Positions 11,174 to 17,941 of a DNA stretch of 64,000 nucleotides are shown in pieces. A model generated the notes under the pieces. That model was not told where the DNA came from. It did not search any database and saw only the letters and a program-made list of their open reading frames with translations. The stretch lies in contig JABUFB010000001.1 in the NCBI GenBank assembly GCA_013314775.1, forward strand, positions 124,001-188,000, in the 5' to 3' direction. How positions within the stretch are numbered: the stretch's first letter is position 1; each line of letters starts with the position of its first letter. The translations under genes were made by a program, and so were the position numbers. The DNA comes from Armatimonadota bacterium (GTDB lineage: Bacteria; Armatimonadota; Zipacnadia; Zipacnadales; JABUFB01).

Positions 11174-11965
11174 ATGAAGGACGCGCGGGAGATCGTCCCC
11201 CTCAACCCCGAGCAAGCCCGCCTGCGAGACTTTGACCTGCGCGAGATCAATGCGCAGGACCCGGGCGACCACATGGCGCTGAAGTACATGGCGCGGCTGG
11301 AGGCAGTGGCGGCTGCGGTGCGCAAATACGCCCCCTTTGGCGGACTGGTGCTGGAAGTCGGTTGCGCGCAGGCCAATGCAGGCCTGCTCCTGGCCGAAGA
11401 AGGGTACCGATGCGTGGGTCTGGACCTGCTGCCGGATTCGTTGGGCTACGCCCGGATGAAGCACGAGCGCGGGGAGTTCCATGCGATCTGCGGGGATGCG
11501 ACGAAGCTGCCTTTTGCACAGGGGGTTTTTGATGCGGCGCTGGTGGGGGAGCTGCTGGAGCACTGTGCGCGGCCTGCGCAGGTGCTTGGCGGGATTGCAC
11601 AGTGTGTCAAGCCCGGCGGGTGTCTGATCCTGACGACGCCAAACGGCGAGCGTATCGGCAACCGCGATCGGACCTTTGCATCGGCTTGCGCGGAGGAAGA
11701 CGAGGGGCGGCAGTTCGGTCCCGGCGGTGAAGACCACCTCTTCGAGTTCACACTTGGGGAACTATCAGGGGTCGTGCGGGATGCCGGGCTGGAAGTGATC
11801 TCCACGCGCCGGCTGGGGTCGGCGCTGCACAGCAACCGGCTTCGCGCGCTGCGGAAGGGGCTCTCCCCGGAGGCTGTCCGGCGCCTAGCAGAGCCCTTGA
11901 ACGCCACGCCGGTGCTGGGACCGAAGCTCGCACTGACACTGCTTGTGGTGGCGCGAGTGCACTAA
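11174..11965 (+). CDS. Class I SAM-dependent methyltransferase
   Basis: A 263-residue Rossmann-fold methyltransferase of the Methyltransf_11 type. Motif I is GLVLEVGCAQANAGLLLAEEG (about 56-76), motif II VGLDLLPDSLGYAR, motif III ICGDATKLPFAQGVFDAALVGELLEH, and the post-core element KPGGCLILTTPNGERIG. The substrate cannot be read from sequence. The position just before a GT-B glycosyltransferase (34 nt) suggests methylation of a glycan or a lipid carrier. It begins 18 nt after the secreted-protein gene with GGGAG upstream of ATG, so it belongs to the same rightward operon. Confidence 0.9.
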   Translation: MKDAREIVPLNPEQARLRDFDLREINAQDPGDHMALKYMARLEAVAAAVRKYAPFGGLVLEVGCAQANAGLLLAEEGYRCVGLDLLPDSLGYARMKHERGEFHAICGDATKLPFAQGVFDAALVGELLEHCARPAQVLGGIAQCVKPGGCLILTTPNGERIGNRDRTFASACAEEDEGRQFGPGGEDHLFEFTLGELSGVVRDAGLEVISTRRLGSALHSNRLRALRKGLSPEAVRRLAEPLNATPVLGPKLALTLLVVARVH

Positions 11966-11999
11966 TAAGAACGGTCCCACCCTGGAATGCGGTGAACCC

Positions 12000-13850
12000 A
12001 TGTCCACAGTGCTGTTCCCCGACGAAAACTCCCAGGCTGCCGCCGATGATCTCGCGCGGTCGGAGGAAGATACAGTCGTCATTCGCCTCGTTGTGCGTGA
12101 GGATGAGCTCCGGCGGCTCAAGATGTCCGGGATCAGCCGGGAGGACTGGCAGGAGGTGGCAGAGCGGTCGGCGGAGCTCACGCGAGAACTGGGGCGGGCG
12201 ATGCCGCCGGGTCTCGGGGCAACGCGGCGGAGCACCGTGAGCTTCTGGGATTGCCGCGGGGAGTCCTTCCGATCGTGGTTCCTGGCGCCCATGCTGGCGA
12301 ATGCGGCAATCGCACGGGCTGCGGTTGCCGAACATGAGCCGAAGCGGGCGATGGTGCTGGAAGATGCCTCCCGGCCCGGGTGGTGGACATGTAGGCAGCA
12401 GGTGTATGAACCGGTCCGCGCGGGGCTTCTCGGGACAGGACTGGAACCCGAGGTACACCCACCGCTTTGGTTGCGCGCGGTTCGCCGAGCGGCGCTGGCA
12501 CTGGCCTCGCCCGCAGACGGCCTGTTCCGGCGCTTCGGCGGCGCAAGGGCGGGTAAGCGGGGGGCCTGGATGCGCTCCCTCGCCGCGCCAGAGCCGGCCG
12601 ATGTGCTCTTCCTGGCAATCGGCGCCACCAGCGTGCCCATCATCGACCGGGTCGCGTCCGCTCTGCAGTCCTTTCACGGGCTGACAAGCGCGGCTCTCAT
12701 GTTCGATCTGGACGACATGGGCATGGAGCGAGCGTCGAAGACCGACACCCCTTACTCGTACATCGACCAAGTGCATGGTGGAATGTGGGAAGCACTGGGC
12801 ACTTTCGGCAGGGTGGCGCTTGCCTGGCCGTGGTGGTATCTGCACACACTGCGGCAGGTGAACCGGACGGAGTTCGGGCGCCTTCTGCCCGCGGTGACCG
12901 CGCTGCTCATGGTAGCCCTCGCGCGAGACAGTCAGCAGACGCTGGCGGATATCGAGGCGGCAGAACGCGCTCTGGACAAGTACACGCCGAAAGTCCTCGT
13001 GTCGCTGCATCTGTCGTGGTATCGCACCGCGCCGCTTGTGCTCGCAGCCCATGCTCGAGGCATACCGGTGGTGTATCTGCAGCACGGAATCTATCTGACG
13101 AAGGACGACTGCACCCTCCCGCTGCCGTATGACGAAATGCTGGTATTCGGGGACTCCGCCGCCGAAGCGCTGGCCGACCGCGCGGGTAAAACGCCGGTGA
13201 CGGTGGTCGGTCATTGCGTGTACGACGACCTCGCGGGGTCGGGCGAGAAGTCGCCCGATCCCGGCGAGTTGCGGCAGGTGCTGCTTGCGACCCAGCCCCA
13301 CGGCTGCGAGAGGGTGGATATGGAGCGTGCGAACTGGTGGGCACGGGGAGTTGCCCTTGCATGCCGGGAGCTTGGGCTGTCTCTGGCCGTAAAACTGCAC
13401 CCGAGGGAGCTTTTCGCCGATGGCTACCGGCGGCTTGAGAACCAGATGCCCGGCACGGTGCATGTCATCCAGCACGGCGAGCGCAATTTGCATGACATGA
13501 TCCGTCAGTCATGCTGCCTTGTGACGGTGGACTCCACAGTGGTGCTGGAAGCGGCGCTGCTGGGGACACCGGCAATGGTGGTGAACCTCTCGGGGAACGA
13601 CGATCGGTTTCCCTTCGTCGCGGACGGAGGGGCGGTGGGGGTGTACCGCTTCGAGGATATTCTGCCCTCTTTGCGGCGGGTTGTGGAAACCGGAGGGGCT
13701 GAACTTGCGAGTACACGGGAGGCCTTCCTGCGGCGGCACCTGGGGATCGCGGATGGCCATAGCGCCCGGAGGGTGGCGGCGATTGTGGCGAGGCACGCGG
13801 GCAAGAGCAGTGGTCGGAGGGCGAACGGGCAGGATTGCCTATCCCGCTGA
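12000..13850 (+). CDS. GT-B fold glycosyltransferase-like protein, possible nonulosonate transferase
   Basis: The ATG at 12000 gives 616 residues. The N-terminal ~250 residues are poorly conserved. The C-terminal half looks like a GT-B/KpsS/CDP-glycerol-transferase type domain: VSLHLSWYRTAPLVLAAHARGIP and VYLQHGIYL, a KLHPREL segment (His467-Pro468), and VTVDSTVVLEAALLGTPAMV with Ser512-Thr513 and Glu517. Bacterial sialyltransferases are known to rely on an HP motif and a later Ser/Thr motif, so a CMP-nonulosonate transferase is possible. The gene is convergent with the neuA/neuB-type cassette 100 nt away. Other options are a capsule or teichoic-type polymer transferase. The fold call is fairly sure; the donor is speculative. 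Confidence 0.7.
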   Translation: MSTVLFPDENSQAAADDLARSEEDTVVIRLVVREDELRRLKMSGISREDWQEVAERSAELTRELGRAMPPGLGATRRSTVSFWDCRGESFRSWFLAPMLANAAIARAAVAEHEPKRAMVLEDASRPGWWTCRQQVYEPVRAGLLGTGLEPEVHPPLWLRAVRRAALALASPADGLFRRFGGARAGKRGAWMRSLAAPEPADVLFLAIGATSVPIIDRVASALQSFHGLTSAALMFDLDDMGMERASKTDTPYSYIDQVHGGMWEALGTFGRVALAWPWWYLHTLRQVNRTEFGRLLPAVTALLMVALARDSQQTLADIEAAERALDKYTPKVLVSLHLSWYRTAPLVLAAHARGIPVVYLQHGIYLTKDDCTLPLPYDEMLVFGDSAAEALADRAGKTPVTVVGHCVYDDLAGSGEKSPDPGELRQVLLATQPHGCERVDMERANWWARGVALACRELGLSLAVKLHPRELFADGYRRLENQMPGTVHVIQHGERNLHDMIRQSCCLVTVDSTVVLEAALLGTPAMVVNLSGNDDRFPFVADGGAVGVYRFEDILPSLRRVVETGGAELASTREAFLRRHLGIADGHSARRVAAIVARHAGKSSGRRANGQDCLSR

Positions 13851-13950: not shown

Positions 13951-15846
13951 TTACCGAACGAACTTCGCCAGGCGATTCAGGGCGATCACGAAGCCCTCGC
14001 CATCGTTGCGGTGGCCCATCCAGATCTCGGGGATGAACCCGACGTCAAGGCCTTGCAGGACAGGCATGATGTCCTCGAAAGGCACCTCTCCCTCGCCGAT
14101 TTGCAGCCCTTCGCCATCGGTGCCCGAGGCGTCTGCGATGTGGACGTGGGCGGTGTGGGGGGCGATGAGGCGAGTGAACTCCAGCAAGTCACCATGTCCC
14201 GCCGCGCAGGCGAGGGCGGCGTGGGAGACGTCGAAGCACAGCCGGGCGCCCGTCGCCTCGACGAGCTGGAGCCAGTCCTCCACAGCCATGAATGCGTCAT
14301 GATACCACTGGCCGCCGAAGTACCACGGATACGGTGGCATATTTTCCATGAGCACTTCCACACCGGGCTCCGCAAGGAGTTGGGGCAAGTTGTCGCACAG
14401 TCGGGCTACCAGGTCGGCGCGGGTGTCGGGCTCCGGCTCATAGCTCATTGCGCCGGGGTGTGAGACAACGCGCACGCGTTCGGGCGTTCCGGAAAAATGC
14501 GGGCGCAGTTCGCGGGCGATGTCCATGACCCGTCGCAGGACATCCATGCTGGTCTGCACCGTGGCGCGGTCCGGGCTGCAGAAGTTGAGCAGGCGGCCGT
14601 GGTAGTACTCGGGCGCGTGGATGACCAATTCCTGGGAGAAGGAGGGCAGGTCCGGTATCTCGGCATCCAGGTCGGTATCGGTGAGGTGGAATTCGAACAG
14701 GTCCGGGTGGAAGCGGGTCATACGGTCCAGGTCGCGGTAGCGCACCACAGGACCCCAGCGCAGGGGGAACCCGCCCGCCAGTTCCTCGAGAGACGCATCG
14801 GACAGGTCGGTCTCGCGGAACTGTTCATCCTGCGCGATATCTCTGCGGGCGGTGCGTCCAATGAGCTCGCCCATGCGCTGGGGAAGGATCCCGTGGCCGG
14901 GCCCCATGACCTTGATCATATCCGCGGCGATGACTTCTCCGGCTCGGATCGGGCGCGCCGCAACCAGGCTCTTGCCCAGGGCCAGGCGATTGAGCAGCTC
15001 CCCACGTGAGCGGACCCTTTTCGGCTTGCCCATGGCCTGCTCCACATTGCGGATGTCCCGCACCTGCTTCTCCAGGCCTACAGGTTCCAGACTGGCGGCG
15101 TGATCGGGGCCGGGCATGGTGCGGTCGAGAGTGATGTGGCGCTCGATGATGCAGGCCCCCATGGCCACGGCGGCGGTGGACACCGCGATCCCACGCTCAT
15201 GCCCAGAGTAACCAACGGGCACCCCGAACTCCCGCAGGCGCTCCATGAAGCGCAGGTTGATGTCCTTGAATGGCGCCGGGTACGTAGACTGGCAATGCAG
15301 AAGCGCAAACTGGACCCCGCGCTGGTGCAGCATTTCCACGGTGGTTGCGATCTCGTCCAGGCTGGACATGCCGGTGGACAGGATCAGCGGCTTGCCGGTG
15401 GCGGCCAGGTGCTCCAGCAGGGGCAGGTTTGTGAGGTCCGCGGATGCCACCTTGTAGCAGCGGATGCCGATGCTCTCCAGGAAGTCCACGCTCTCGATGT
15501 CCCACGGACTGCAGATGAACTCCACGCCGCGTTCGGCGCAGTATCCCGACAGGTCGCGCATGACCTCCTCAGAGAGCTCAGCCTGCTGCAGGTAGGGCAG
15601 GAGAAAGCCGATCTCCTTTTCCTCGCGTGTGGGGTCGTCGAGGGTGCGAGCGGAGTAAAGGGTTTCCAGCGTGCGCTTCTGGAACTTCACCGCATCGACC
15701 CCGGATGCCACAGCTACGTCGATGAGCTTGCGGGCAAGCTCGGGGTTGCCGTTGTGGTTGATACCCGCCTCTGCGATGATGTATGCCGGCTCGCCGGGGC
15801 CGATGAGGCGGTCGCCGATTGCCAGGTGTGTGATGATTCGCGTCAT
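13951..15846 (-). CDS. NeuB-type nonulosonate synthase fused to SAF and TIM-barrel epimerase domains
   Basis: Condenses phosphoenolpyruvate with an N-acetyl-hexosamine or related hexose to make a nine-carbon 2-keto sugar acid. The NeuB barrel covers residues 1-285: YIIAEAGINHNGN, AVKFQKRT, STGMSS, HCQSTYPAPF, and metal-binding His216 (GYSGHE) and His237 (IERHITLD). A SAF/antifreeze-like domain follows (289-345: GKSLVAARPIRAGEVIAADM, GRTARRDI). Residues 360-631 form a second barrel of the xylose-isomerase/AP-endonuclease-2 type with likely metal ligands Glu501, Asp539, His542, His567, His569 and Glu607. Ordinary NeuB/PseI/LegI proteins are about 340-350 residues, so this is a fusion. It starts 3 nt after the neuA-like stop. 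Confidence 0.93.
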   Translation of the reverse strand: MTRIITHLAIGDRLIGPGEPAYIIAEAGINHNGNPELARKLIDVAVASGVDAVKFQKRTLETLYSARTLDDPTREEKEIGFLLPYLQQAELSEEVMRDLSGYCAERGVEFICSPWDIESVDFLESIGIRCYKVASADLTNLPLLEHLAATGKPLILSTGMSSLDEIATTVEMLHQRGVQFALLHCQSTYPAPFKDINLRFMERLREFGVPVGYSGHERGIAVSTAAVAMGACIIERHITLDRTMPGPDHAASLEPVGLEKQVRDIRNVEQAMGKPKRVRSRGELLNRLALGKSLVAARPIRAGEVIAADMIKVMGPGHGILPQRMGELIGRTARRDIAQDEQFRETDLSDASLEELAGGFPLRWGPVVRYRDLDRMTRFHPDLFEFHLTDTDLDAEIPDLPSFSQELVIHAPEYYHGRLLNFCSPDRATVQTSMDVLRRVMDIARELRPHFSGTPERVRVVSHPGAMSYEPEPDTRADLVARLCDNLPQLLAEPGVEVLMENMPPYPWYFGGQWYHDAFMAVEDWLQLVEATGARLCFDVSHAALACAAGHGDLLEFTRLIAPHTAHVHIADASGTDGEGLQIGEGEVPFEDIMPVLQGLDVGFIPEIWMGHRNDGEGFVIALNRLAKFVR

Positions 15847-15849
15847 GCT

Positions 15850-16551
15850 TCAGCGTATCTCGATGCCCCGGATGGCTTCTCCGGCGAGCACGAAATCCTC
15901 CTCATGGTCAATGTCGATGGAGCGGATCGGGTCCATCTCCACCACCCTTACGTGGCCGCCAAGACGGTTCTGGTACGCGAGCAGGACATCACGGCGGGTC
16001 ACGTAGACCGCCCCATTTTCCCGGTACTTCTGGGGCATGTCCTGGGAGCGCGGGCGCTTCTGGTAGTCATACTCGGCATGGTACCGTCCGGTCTCGTCAC
16101 GAGTGCCCATGAGATACCAGTGCTGCACGTGCAGGACAGTCATTACTGCGTCGCAGCCGGAATCAAAGAGCAGGTTGATGCACTCGTCGATGGTGTCGGT
16201 CCCGCGCAAAGGCGAGGTGCACTGCAGAAGGGTCACAGCGTCGGGAATGTACCCCTCCCTGTCCTCAAGGACCTGGAGGGCGTGGAGCAGAGCGGGCTCG
16301 GTGGGGGTTGTGTCCCCGGCGAGCTCCGCGGGCCGGCGGATGACTTCGGCCCCTGCGGCAGAAGCGACTTCGGCGATCTCATCATCATCCGTAGAGACCA
16401 CCAGGCGGTCGATGAGGGTGGACCTCAGGGCAGCCTCGATGGTCCACACGATCAGCGGCTTGCCCGCCAGTTCCCGCACATTCTTGCGGGGGATCCCCTT
16501 GGAGCCCCCGCGAGCGGGGATGATGGCCAGTACACGACGATTGGTGTCCAT
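15850..16551 (-). CDS. CMP-nonulosonate synthetase (acylneuraminate cytidylyltransferase family)
   Basis: Activates a nonulosonic acid with CTP to give the CMP-sugar donor. The start at 16551 is chosen over an ATG 18 nt upstream because GGAGAG lies 6 nt before it, giving 233 residues, normal for NeuA/PseF/LegF. Motifs are IIPARGGSKGIPRKNVRELAGKPLI (CTP loop), VVSTDDDEIAEVA, TLLQCTSPLRG, a YRENGAVYVTR segment and the DIDHEEDF acidic metal site. It is the middle gene of the cassette, 33 nt after the GHMP kinase stop and 3 nt before the NeuB fusion. Which nonulosonate it uses (Neu, Leg, Pse or Kdn type) cannot be decided from sequence. Confidence 0.92.
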   Translation of the reverse strand: MDTNRRVLAIIPARGGSKGIPRKNVRELAGKPLIVWTIEAALRSTLIDRLVVSTDDDEIAEVASAAGAEVIRRPAELAGDTTPTEPALLHALQVLEDREGYIPDAVTLLQCTSPLRGTDTIDECINLLFDSGCDAVMTVLHVQHWYLMGTRDETGRYHAEYDYQKRPRSQDMPQKYRENGAVYVTRRDVLLAYQNRLGGHVRVVEMDPIRSIDIDHEEDFVLAGEAIRGIEIR

Positions 16552-16584
16552 GATGGTCTCTCCGCACAACGCAATGACGGCGGA

Positions 16585-17601
16585 TCAGTAGCGCTCGATC
16601 GTGAGCCCGGGCGATGGCACCAGTCTGATGAGCCTTTCTGCCCCCGCCGCCAGAAGCTGTGCCCCCATCCAGTCGGGGGATTCGTGCAGGGCGATGATGG
16701 TACCCCCGCGCCCGGCGCCGGATAGCTTCGCGCCAAGCGCTCCGGCCTTCAACGCCGCGTTGATGAGGCGTTCGTTCGGTTCGCCCACGCCCACGAGGTC
16801 CTGGACCAGAGCGTGGCTCTCGCGCATGAGTTCGCCCAACCACTCCCAGTCGGCGTTGATGAGTGCGCGCTTGCCGAGTCTGCCCAGTTCGCCGATGCGC
16901 GCGAAGCCCGCGATCTGGGCCGGGTCGCCGTTCTCCCACTTGCGGCGGGGTTCGGCATGGTACTGTCCCGAATGACGCTGGACGCCGCTGTTGGCCAGGA
17001 TGAAGGGCAGGTTCGGAACGTCCTGAGCCAGGGGTTCCACGGTGGCATAGGGTGCCCGGGGGTCGAAAGTGTGGTTCTCCTTGCCCCGCAGGTCCACGCA
17101 GTTGAGGCCACCGAAGACCACCATGTATTGGTCCTGGAAGCCGCAGTGGACTCCCAGTTCCTGGCGCTCCACGCGGCGCGCAAGTTCGGCAAGTTCGTGA
17201 CGCGGGATCTCAATGTCGAAATGGGCCAGGGTTCCGGCGAGGATCACCAGGAGCATGGCCGTCGAACCGGCGCAGCCACTCATGAGAGGAATATTGCTCT
17301 GAGCGCGCACATGGAAGGTTGCATTGGGGTCGATGAGGCCTTTCTCCGCGTACTCGCTGGTGCGCAGATAGCGCCAGACCGCTTTCGCCACATCCAGGAA
17401 GTGGAGGTCCGGGTCATAGGCGAGCTTATCCGGGGTGTCGATGACCTGGTACTGGCCGTAGATGTCGAAGATCAGCACCGGGCTGGAAGCAACGGTTGCG
17501 TCAGCGCGCTCGCCGATGGTACAGGAAACCACCGTGCCGCCGTATATGTCGGATGGATTGCCGATGATGCCCCCGCGACCGGGAGCAGTGACGCGAACCA
17601 T
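16585..17601 (-). CDS. GHMP-family sugar kinase, glucuronokinase-like
   Basis: A 338-residue small-molecule kinase of the GHMP superfamily. Motif 1 is PGRGGIIGNPSDIYGG (7-22); the GNPSD segment is the hallmark of glucuronokinase-type members. Motif 2 (ATP loop) is IPLMSGCAGSTAM (104-116), and motif 3 is LGAKLSGAGRGGTIIAL near the C-terminus. Known relatives phosphorylate a sugar at C-1, for example glucuronate to glucuronate-1-phosphate. It is the first gene of the nonulosonate cassette, preceded by a plausible promoter. Its product might feed the NeuB step, or it might act in uronate salvage with the nearby heparinase-like protein. Substrate assignment is inference; family assignment is strong. 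Confidence 0.85.
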   Translation of the reverse strand: MVRVTAPGRGGIIGNPSDIYGGTVVSCTIGERADATVASSPVLIFDIYGQYQVIDTPDKLAYDPDLHFLDVAKAVWRYLRTSEYAEKGLIDPNATFHVRAQSNIPLMSGCAGSTAMLLVILAGTLAHFDIEIPRHELAELARRVERQELGVHCGFQDQYMVVFGGLNCVDLRGKENHTFDPRAPYATVEPLAQDVPNLPFILANSGVQRHSGQYHAEPRRKWENGDPAQIAGFARIGELGRLGKRALINADWEWLGELMRESHALVQDLVGVGEPNERLINAALKAGALGAKLSGAGRGGTIIALHESPDWMGAQLLAAGAERLIRLVPSPGLTIERY

Positions 17602-17674: not shown

Positions 17675-17690
17675 GAAGAGCGTGAGTGAT

Positions 17691-17775
17691 GCCCCGGGTT
17701 GATACCCGGGTTGATGCCCCGGGTTGATACCCGGGTTGACGCCCCGGGTTGATGCCCCGGGTTGAAACCCGGGGC
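17691..17775. repeat. Tandem repeat of 12-13 bp units
   Basis: GCCCCGGGTTGAT and ACCCGGGTTGAT units alternate with a 25-bp period, ending in GTTGAAACCCGGGGCT. Each unit contains CCCGGG, so the array can fold in many registers. Confidence 0.85.
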
Positions 17776-17895
17776 TACAGGCCTGCGGCCGGGCGTCCTG
17801 AGGGACGCGTAGGTTGACGCCCCAGATCGACGCCCCGCGCTGAAGCACGGGGCTATGGGCCTGCGGCCGGGCGTCCTGAGGACGGGCTTTCCCGT

Positions 17896-17941
17896 CCCGC
17901 GCTGAAGCCCCGCGCTGAAGCCCCGCGCTGAAGCACGGGGC
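17896..17941. repeat. Three tandem 13-bp units
   Basis: CCCGCGCTGAAGC repeated three times, followed by ACGGGG. A single unit with ACGGGGCT forms the CCCCGCGCTGAAGCACGGGG hairpin seen elsewhere in the island and at 47.9 kb. Confidence 0.8.

What the first reader, a model, noticed from the sequence alone, without database searches (positions are those of the whole stretch)
13951..15846. NeuB nonulosonate synthase fused to a xylose-isomerase-type TIM barrel
Residues 1-345 form a complete NeuB-SAF enzyme with both metal-binding His. Residues 360-631 add a second barrel with a plausible intact metal site (Glu501, Asp539, His542, His567/569, Glu607). Standard NeuB, PseI and LegI stop near residue 350. 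The extra domain could isomerise or epimerise the sugar substrate just before condensation, replacing the separate epimerase of known pathways.
Basis: partly seen in the sequence, partly recalled or inferred. Interest (0 to 1): 0.7.

Follow-up and report, generated by a model that had tools for sequence, protein, structure and literature searches.

The report
Sialic-acid-type synthase with fused metal barrel
One bacterial protein joins the enzyme that builds sialic-acid-like sugars to a second metal-binding barrel; the same fusion occurs in many unrelated microbes, and the second half looks more like a phosphate-removing enzyme than the sugar isomerase first proposed, which would make two pathway steps in one protein.

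Summary
The fusion is real: a 631-aa ORF on the MINUS strand (13951-15846), NeuB + SAF + AP_endonuc_2, last gene of a tight operon GHMP kinase - CMP-sugar cytidylyltransferase - fusion. It is not an assembly accident. Every relative on an untruncated contig is also one ORF (about 80 loci: Armatimonadota, Chloroflexota, Deltaproteobacteria, Verrucomicrobia, Planctomycetota, Patescibacteria, a methanogen), usually beside a CMP-sugar synthetase. I found no paper on it. The barrel is confidently folded (pLDDT 92.6) and its metal site is intact, but it is not the isomerase type. It carries two extra invariant His (410, 463) found in endonuclease IV, CbiR and MJ1311 and absent from the hydroxypyruvate-isomerase-like and IolE-like proteins tested. 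The NeuB half lacks the SAF Arg (R314) that positions N-acetyl in free-sugar NeuBs, and shares signatures (KFQKR, GYSGHE) with a sister clade of SAF-less NeuBs whose CMP-synthetase is fused to a KdsC/KDN-9-P-phosphatase-like HAD. Fusion loci almost always lack that HAD. Best reading: the barrel is a built-in phosphatase for a nonulosonate-9-phosphate made from a hexose-6-phosphate (KDN-like). An isomerase feeding the NeuB site remains the main rival. One Ensifer relative with a degenerate barrel and one locus with both modules count against certainty. No function has been assayed.

The parts
13951..15846 (-). NeuB-SAF-barrel fusion, 631 aa (ATG at 15846, stop at 13951)
   Evidence: AF2 pLDDT 93.3, pTM 0.75
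14797..15846 (-). NeuB + SAF half (residues 1-350): PEP-dependent NulO synthase; R314 equivalent is Gly315; signatures KFQKR (54-58) and GYSGHER (212-218)
13954..14793 (-). C-terminal TIM barrel (residues 352-631), metal ligand candidates H410, H463, E501, D539, H542, H569, E607
   Evidence: AF2 pLDDT 92.6, pTM 0.92; Foldseek best 3wqo MJ1311; ligands invariant in 55/55
15850..16569 (-). CMP-sugar cytidylyltransferase (NeuA/PseF-like, no HAD domain); probable start ATG about 16551; stop lies 4 bp before the fusion's ATG
16585..17601 (-). GHMP sugar kinase, nearest solved relatives are heptose-phosphate kinases; conserved beside the fusion only in near relatives (70-80% identity)
11943..13850 (+). 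Convergent glycosyltransferase, weakly like the BFO_1060 / surface polysaccharide families; homologue lies directly downstream of the fusion in L034

Best explanation
The protein is a two-step enzyme of CMP-nonulosonate synthesis. The NeuB-SAF half condenses PEP with a phosphorylated, mannose-configured hexose (most likely mannose-6-phosphate, or a hexosamine-6-phosphate) to a nonulosonate-9-phosphate. The fused C-terminal barrel, a di-metal endonuclease-IV/CbiR/MJ1311-type site, removes the 9-phosphate, giving the free nonulosonate that the neighbouring cytidylyltransferase activates for surface-glycan glycosyltransferases. The fused barrel would be a non-orthologous stand-in for the HAD phosphatase that the sister lineage fuses to its CMP-synthetase. 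Shown: fusion, conservation, ligand set, loss of R314, shared signatures, gene neighbours. Inferred: phosphorylated substrate, phosphatase activity, product identity.
For: (1) Ligand set: H at both distinguishing positions in the fused barrel, CbiR and MJ1311 (H463 column also in 6/6 Nfo; the H410 column pairs with EndoIV 'VHAP' in the alignment); hydroxypyruvate-isomerase-like (6) and IolE-like (5) proteins lack them. CbiR hydrolyses a phosphoester (PMC7733943). (2) Closest solved relatives MJ1311 E 6.6e-17, then EndoIV 1e-6. (3) R314, which positions the N-acetyl group of ManNAc (PMC6795526), is G/T/S/C in 75/75 fusions; 12 of 14 SAF-bearing standalone NeuBs have R. (4) Fusion NeuBs form one clade (100/99), sister to SAF-less NeuBs (96/87); both share R58 (75/75 and 11/11 versus F/Y/H in R314-type) and GYSGHE. 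(5) 8 of 9 sister loci carry a KdsC/KDN-9-P-phosphatase-like HAD, mostly fused to the CMP-synthetase, versus 3 of 84 fusion loci (one of these belongs to a SAF-less pair) and 0 of 16 other NeuB loci. (6) KDN routes need Man-6-P synthase plus phosphatase (PMC6200933).
Against: No assay. L079 carries both an intact NeuA-HAD and an intact fused barrel. The Zn3 ligands of EndoIV (D229, H231) are Gly here, so the site is not the full trinuclear one. In Ensifer canadensis pT173e the barrel has lost two ligands (H463N, E501Q), and a ManC-type enzyme with a mannose-6-P isomerase domain lies next to the NeuA; that could be read as replacement of an isomerase. The substrate phosphate is inferred only from R314 loss and shared signatures. 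The HAD comparison treats related loci as independent.
Confidence: 0.42

Rival explanations
1. Isomerase/epimerase: the barrel makes the mannose-configured aldose (from fructose, fructose-6-P or an epimer) just before PEP condensation, replacing NeuC/PMI-type enzymes.
For: AP_endonuc_2 fold; Foldseek also matches UlaE and ketose 3-epimerases; E501/D539/H569/E607 suffice for a ketose-epimerase-type site; no NeuC/LegG/PseG gene among the neighbour families annotated; in Ensifer a degenerate barrel coincides with a PMI-domain enzyme beside the NeuA.
Against: H410 and H463 are invariant, and the hydroxypyruvate-isomerase-like and IolE-like proteins tested lack them; the sister lineage couples NeuB to a phosphatase, not an isomerase.
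Confidence: 0.27
2. Another hydrolytic or tailoring reaction: for example release of a hexose from an NDP-sugar or sugar phosphate before condensation, or a late modification of the nonulosonate.
For: EndoIV/CbiR-type site is hydrolytic; variable neighbours (radical SAM, DegT, carbamoyltransferase, SDR, Gfo/Idh/MocA) show the final sugars differ between clades.
Against: The one neighbour shared across clades is the CMP-synthetase; a hexose-releasing hydrolase would not explain the HAD complementarity.
Confidence: 0.18
3. The barrel is a non-catalytic structural or regulatory module.
For: The Ensifer homologue has lost two ligands while keeping the NeuB residues.
Against: Seven ligand candidates plus R369, D372, E385, D392, E413, D572, E579, W609 and H612 are invariant in 55 sequences across phyla.
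Confidence: 0.06

Closest known systems
N-acetylneuraminate synthase NeuB (N. meningitidis, 1XUU) / NCBIfam TIGR03569
   Same: Barrel + SAF, all metal/PEP residues; 356 bits to TIGR03569
   Different: Below the equivalog cutoff (399.65 bits); R314 replaced by Gly, F288 by Ala; extra C-terminal barrel
KDN-9-P / Neu5Ac-9-P synthase routes with a separate or CMP-synthetase-fused HAD phosphatase (B. thetaiotaomicron, vertebrates, P. parvum)
   Same: Sister SAF-less NeuBs sit with CMP-synthetase-HAD fusions; the step logic synthase, phosphatase, CMP-activation fits
   Different: Here the second module is a metal TIM barrel on the synthase, not a HAD on the CMP-synthetase; phosphorylated substrate not shown
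MJ1311 (3WQO, D-tagatose 3-epimerase-like, function unknown)
   Same: Closest solved relative of the barrel by HMM and by fold; same H, H, E, D, H, H set
   Different: Standalone; keeps D and H at the Zn3 positions that are Gly here
Endonuclease IV (Nfo) and CbiR
   Same: Same barrel and the H,H,E,D,H,H,E ligands
   Different: No DNA or cobamide role likely; fused to NeuB; WYFGGQW loop; Zn3 ligands lost relative to Nfo
Xylose-isomerase-like epimerases/isomerases (UlaE, DTE, Hyi, IolE)
   Same: Fold and the shared E/D/H/E core (E501, D539, H569, E607) in the Hyi-like proteins
   Different: The Hyi-like and IolE-like proteins tested lack the two extra His

Membership tests
NeuB/NnaB N-acetylneuraminate synthase (TIGR03569) | Score above the curated equivalog cutoff | tested here: not met
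   356.2 versus 399.65 bits
NeuB/NnaB N-acetylneuraminate synthase (TIGR03569) | SAF Arg314 positioning the N-acetyl group | tested here: not met
   Gly in the window; G/T/S/C in 75/75 fusions
NeuB family in the broad sense (PF03102 + SAF) | NeuB barrel with metal/PEP residues, SAF domain | tested here: met
Sugar-6-phosphate-using NulO synthase (NANS / KDN-9-P synthase type) | Accepts hexose-6-phosphate; product needs a phosphatase | not testable with these tools
   Only indirect: R314 loss, shared R58/GYSGHE with the HAD-linked sister clade
AP_endonuc_2 superfamily (PF01261) | Pfam match over cutoff and TIM-barrel fold | tested here: met
   88.9 versus 31.1 bits; fold
Xylose-isomerase-type isomerase/epimerase | Ligand pattern of the isomerases tested (E, D, H, E without the two extra His) | tested here: not met
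   H410 and H463 present in 55/55; E/D/N or gap and T/C in Hyi-like, gap and A in IolE-like
Xylose-isomerase-type isomerase/epimerase | Interconverts aldose/ketose or ketose epimers | not testable with these tools
   needs assay
Endonuclease IV | Nine Zn ligands (H69,H109,E145,D179,H182,H216,D229,H231,E261; E. coli numbering from memory) | tested here: not met
   Seven of nine; the D229/H231 positions are Gly578/Gly580
CbiR cobamide phosphodiesterase (NF041277) | Score over cutoff (105 bits) | tested here: not met
   20.7 bits, although the ligand His/Asp/Glu pattern agrees

The most novel reading that the evidence does not exclude
An endonuclease-IV/MJ1311-type di-metal barrel is a dedicated nonulosonate-9-phosphate phosphatase fused to its synthase, defining a compact KDN-like CMP-sugar pathway spread over many uncultured phyla. 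This would be a new activity for the AP_endonuc_2 superfamily.
Probability: 0.35. Interest if true: 0.68.

Novelty: new variant of a known kind. Interest (0 to 1): 0.5.

Why it matters
If right, many environmental bacteria (notably Anaerolineae, where the cluster also carries sulfation genes) make a nonulosonate by a compact route that present annotation calls N-acetylneuraminate synthase. That would change predictions of which sugar they display. It would also give a function to the MJ1311-like, His-rich branch of the xylose-isomerase-like barrels, whose best structure has no assigned role.

Tried and rejected
Chimeric assembly or chance ORF: rejected, fused in all untruncated relatives across phyla. 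Viral or phage origin: no match. Standard Neu5Ac, Pse or Leg synthase: scores below equivalog cutoffs and R314 lost. Literature on the fusion: none found. WecB/NeuC-type epimerase presence in fusion genomes: found in 14 of 16 genomes searched but not informative, as such enzymes are common. GHMP kinase as a clue to the substrate: found beside the fusion only in close Armatimonadota and with ambiguous homology, so not used. No human NANS structure came up in the PDB search, so NANS was not compared; a remembered similarity of its GYSGHE motif is only a lead.

Full report
Observation. The ORF lies on the minus strand, 15846 to 13951, 631 aa. Pfam finds NeuB, SAF and AP_endonuc_2 in that order. 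It ends a tight operon: GHMP kinase (16585-17601), CMP-sugar cytidylyltransferase (15850-16569) and the fusion; the cytidylyltransferase stop is 4 bp from the fusion start. A glycosyltransferase converges from the other strand.

Spread. In 291 genomes of the same phylum the C-terminal domain occurs in 16, all of one order; all untruncated hits are fused. One scan of 84,980 species genomes with the barrel alignment gave 103 relatives, 80 kept, in Armatimonadota/Zipacnadia, Chloroflexota, Deltaproteobacteria, Verrucomicrobia, Planctomycetota, Patescibacteria and a Methanoregula. All but contig-truncated ones carry NeuB and barrel in one ORF. In 48 of 77 loci the gene directly upstream is the CMP-synthetase, and a capsule-type glycosyltransferase often follows. 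Fusion NeuBs form one clade (100/99), so one fusion event is the simplest history.

The barrel. AF2 gives pLDDT 92.6 and pTM 0.92. Foldseek ranks MJ1311 (3wqo) first, then UlaE, EndoIV and ketose 3-epimerases. The sequence profile finds MJ1311 (6.6e-17) and EndoIV (1e-6) but isomerases only weakly. Candidate ligands H410, H463, E501, D539, H542, H569 and E607 are invariant in 55/55 and lie at or just past the C-terminal ends of strands in the model. Profile alignment and a joint alignment show H at both 410 and 463 in CbiR and MJ1311; Nfo has H at 463 and its 'VHAP' motif pairs with 410. Hydroxypyruvate-isomerase-like and IolE-like proteins lack both. The hydroxypyruvate-isomerase-like set scored below that family's curated cutoff, as did the IolE-like set, so they are relatives, not proven members; UlaE and ketose 3-epimerases were not compared residue by residue. 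The third-metal ligands of EndoIV are Gly here. The site is therefore most like a di-metal phosphoesterase site.

The NeuB half. All metal and PEP residues are kept in 75/75 apart from one E25D, but Arg314, which in N. meningitidis NeuB positions the N-acetyl group (PMC6795526), is G/T/S/C in 75/75; 12 of 14 SAF-bearing standalone NeuBs keep it. The sister group is a SAF-less NeuB clade (96/87). Fusion and sister share K57-R58 after the active-site Gln and GYSGHE around the metal His; R314-type NeuBs have an aromatic or His at position 58 and mostly LSDHT.

Context test. The sister NeuBs sit beside a CMP-synthetase fused to a C0-type HAD resembling KdsC, the B. thetaiotaomicron KDN-9-P phosphatase entries (3e81/3e8m; that identity is from my own knowledge, the entries are labelled acylneuraminate cytidylyltransferase) and a mammalian CMP-synthetase HAD domain. 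HAD is found in 8 of 9 sister loci, 3 of 84 fusion loci and 0 of 16 R314-type or other NeuB loci. One of the three, L062, belongs to a SAF-less pair in the same cluster. The Fisher p values treat related loci as independent and serve only as a guide. A phosphorylated route needs a phosphatase between synthase and CMP-activation (PMC6200933). The fused barrel occupies that place.

Counter-evidence. L079 has both modules, both with intact motifs. In Ensifer canadensis pT173e the fusion gains an N-terminal CBS domain and loses two ligands (H463N, E501Q), and a ManC-type enzyme with mannose-6-P isomerase domain lies upstream of the NeuA. This supports mannose-6-P supply but could also mean the isomerase function moved out of the barrel.

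Verdict. Best supported is a synthase plus phosphatase fusion, at 0.42. No paper describing the fusion was found in the open-licence library; subscription papers were not searchable.

Noticed in passing
whole genome G000: 65 AP_endonuc_2 (xylose-isomerase-like) matches in a 6.1 Mb genome, a large expansion; several (L167, L176, L184) share the His-His ligand pattern.
   Followed up: partly
L202:8230-9360 (G000:C10): Second, divergent NeuB-SAF protein that lacks several catalytic residues (K53D, Q55F, K129N, Y186S, S213V, E234S) and sits with a Pyr_redox_2 and a zinc alcohol dehydrogenase gene, with a xylose-isomerase-like gene about 3 kb away; possibly a repurposed NeuB fold.
   Followed up: partly
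L046, L047, L052, L058, L093, L109, L110 and others (Chloroflexota): Conserved cluster pairs the NulO fusion with a fused ATP-sulfurylase/APS kinase and sulfotransferases, suggesting sulfated nonulosonate glycans; fits reports of sialylation plus sulfation in granular sludge (PMC10483923).
   Followed up: partly
L203:11566-13959 (Ensifer canadensis pT173e): Fusion with an added N-terminal CBS domain and a degenerate barrel metal site, beside NeuA and a ManC-type enzyme; a cultured strain, useful for tests.
   Followed up: partly
L197:6785-8887 and L198:8049-10098: SAF-less NeuB next to a CMP-sugar synthetase fused to a KdsC-like HAD phosphatase, conserved in Armatimonadota.
   Followed up: yes
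window 17687-17934: GC-rich tandem repeats (13, 25 and 78 bp units) just upstream of the operon.
   Followed up: no
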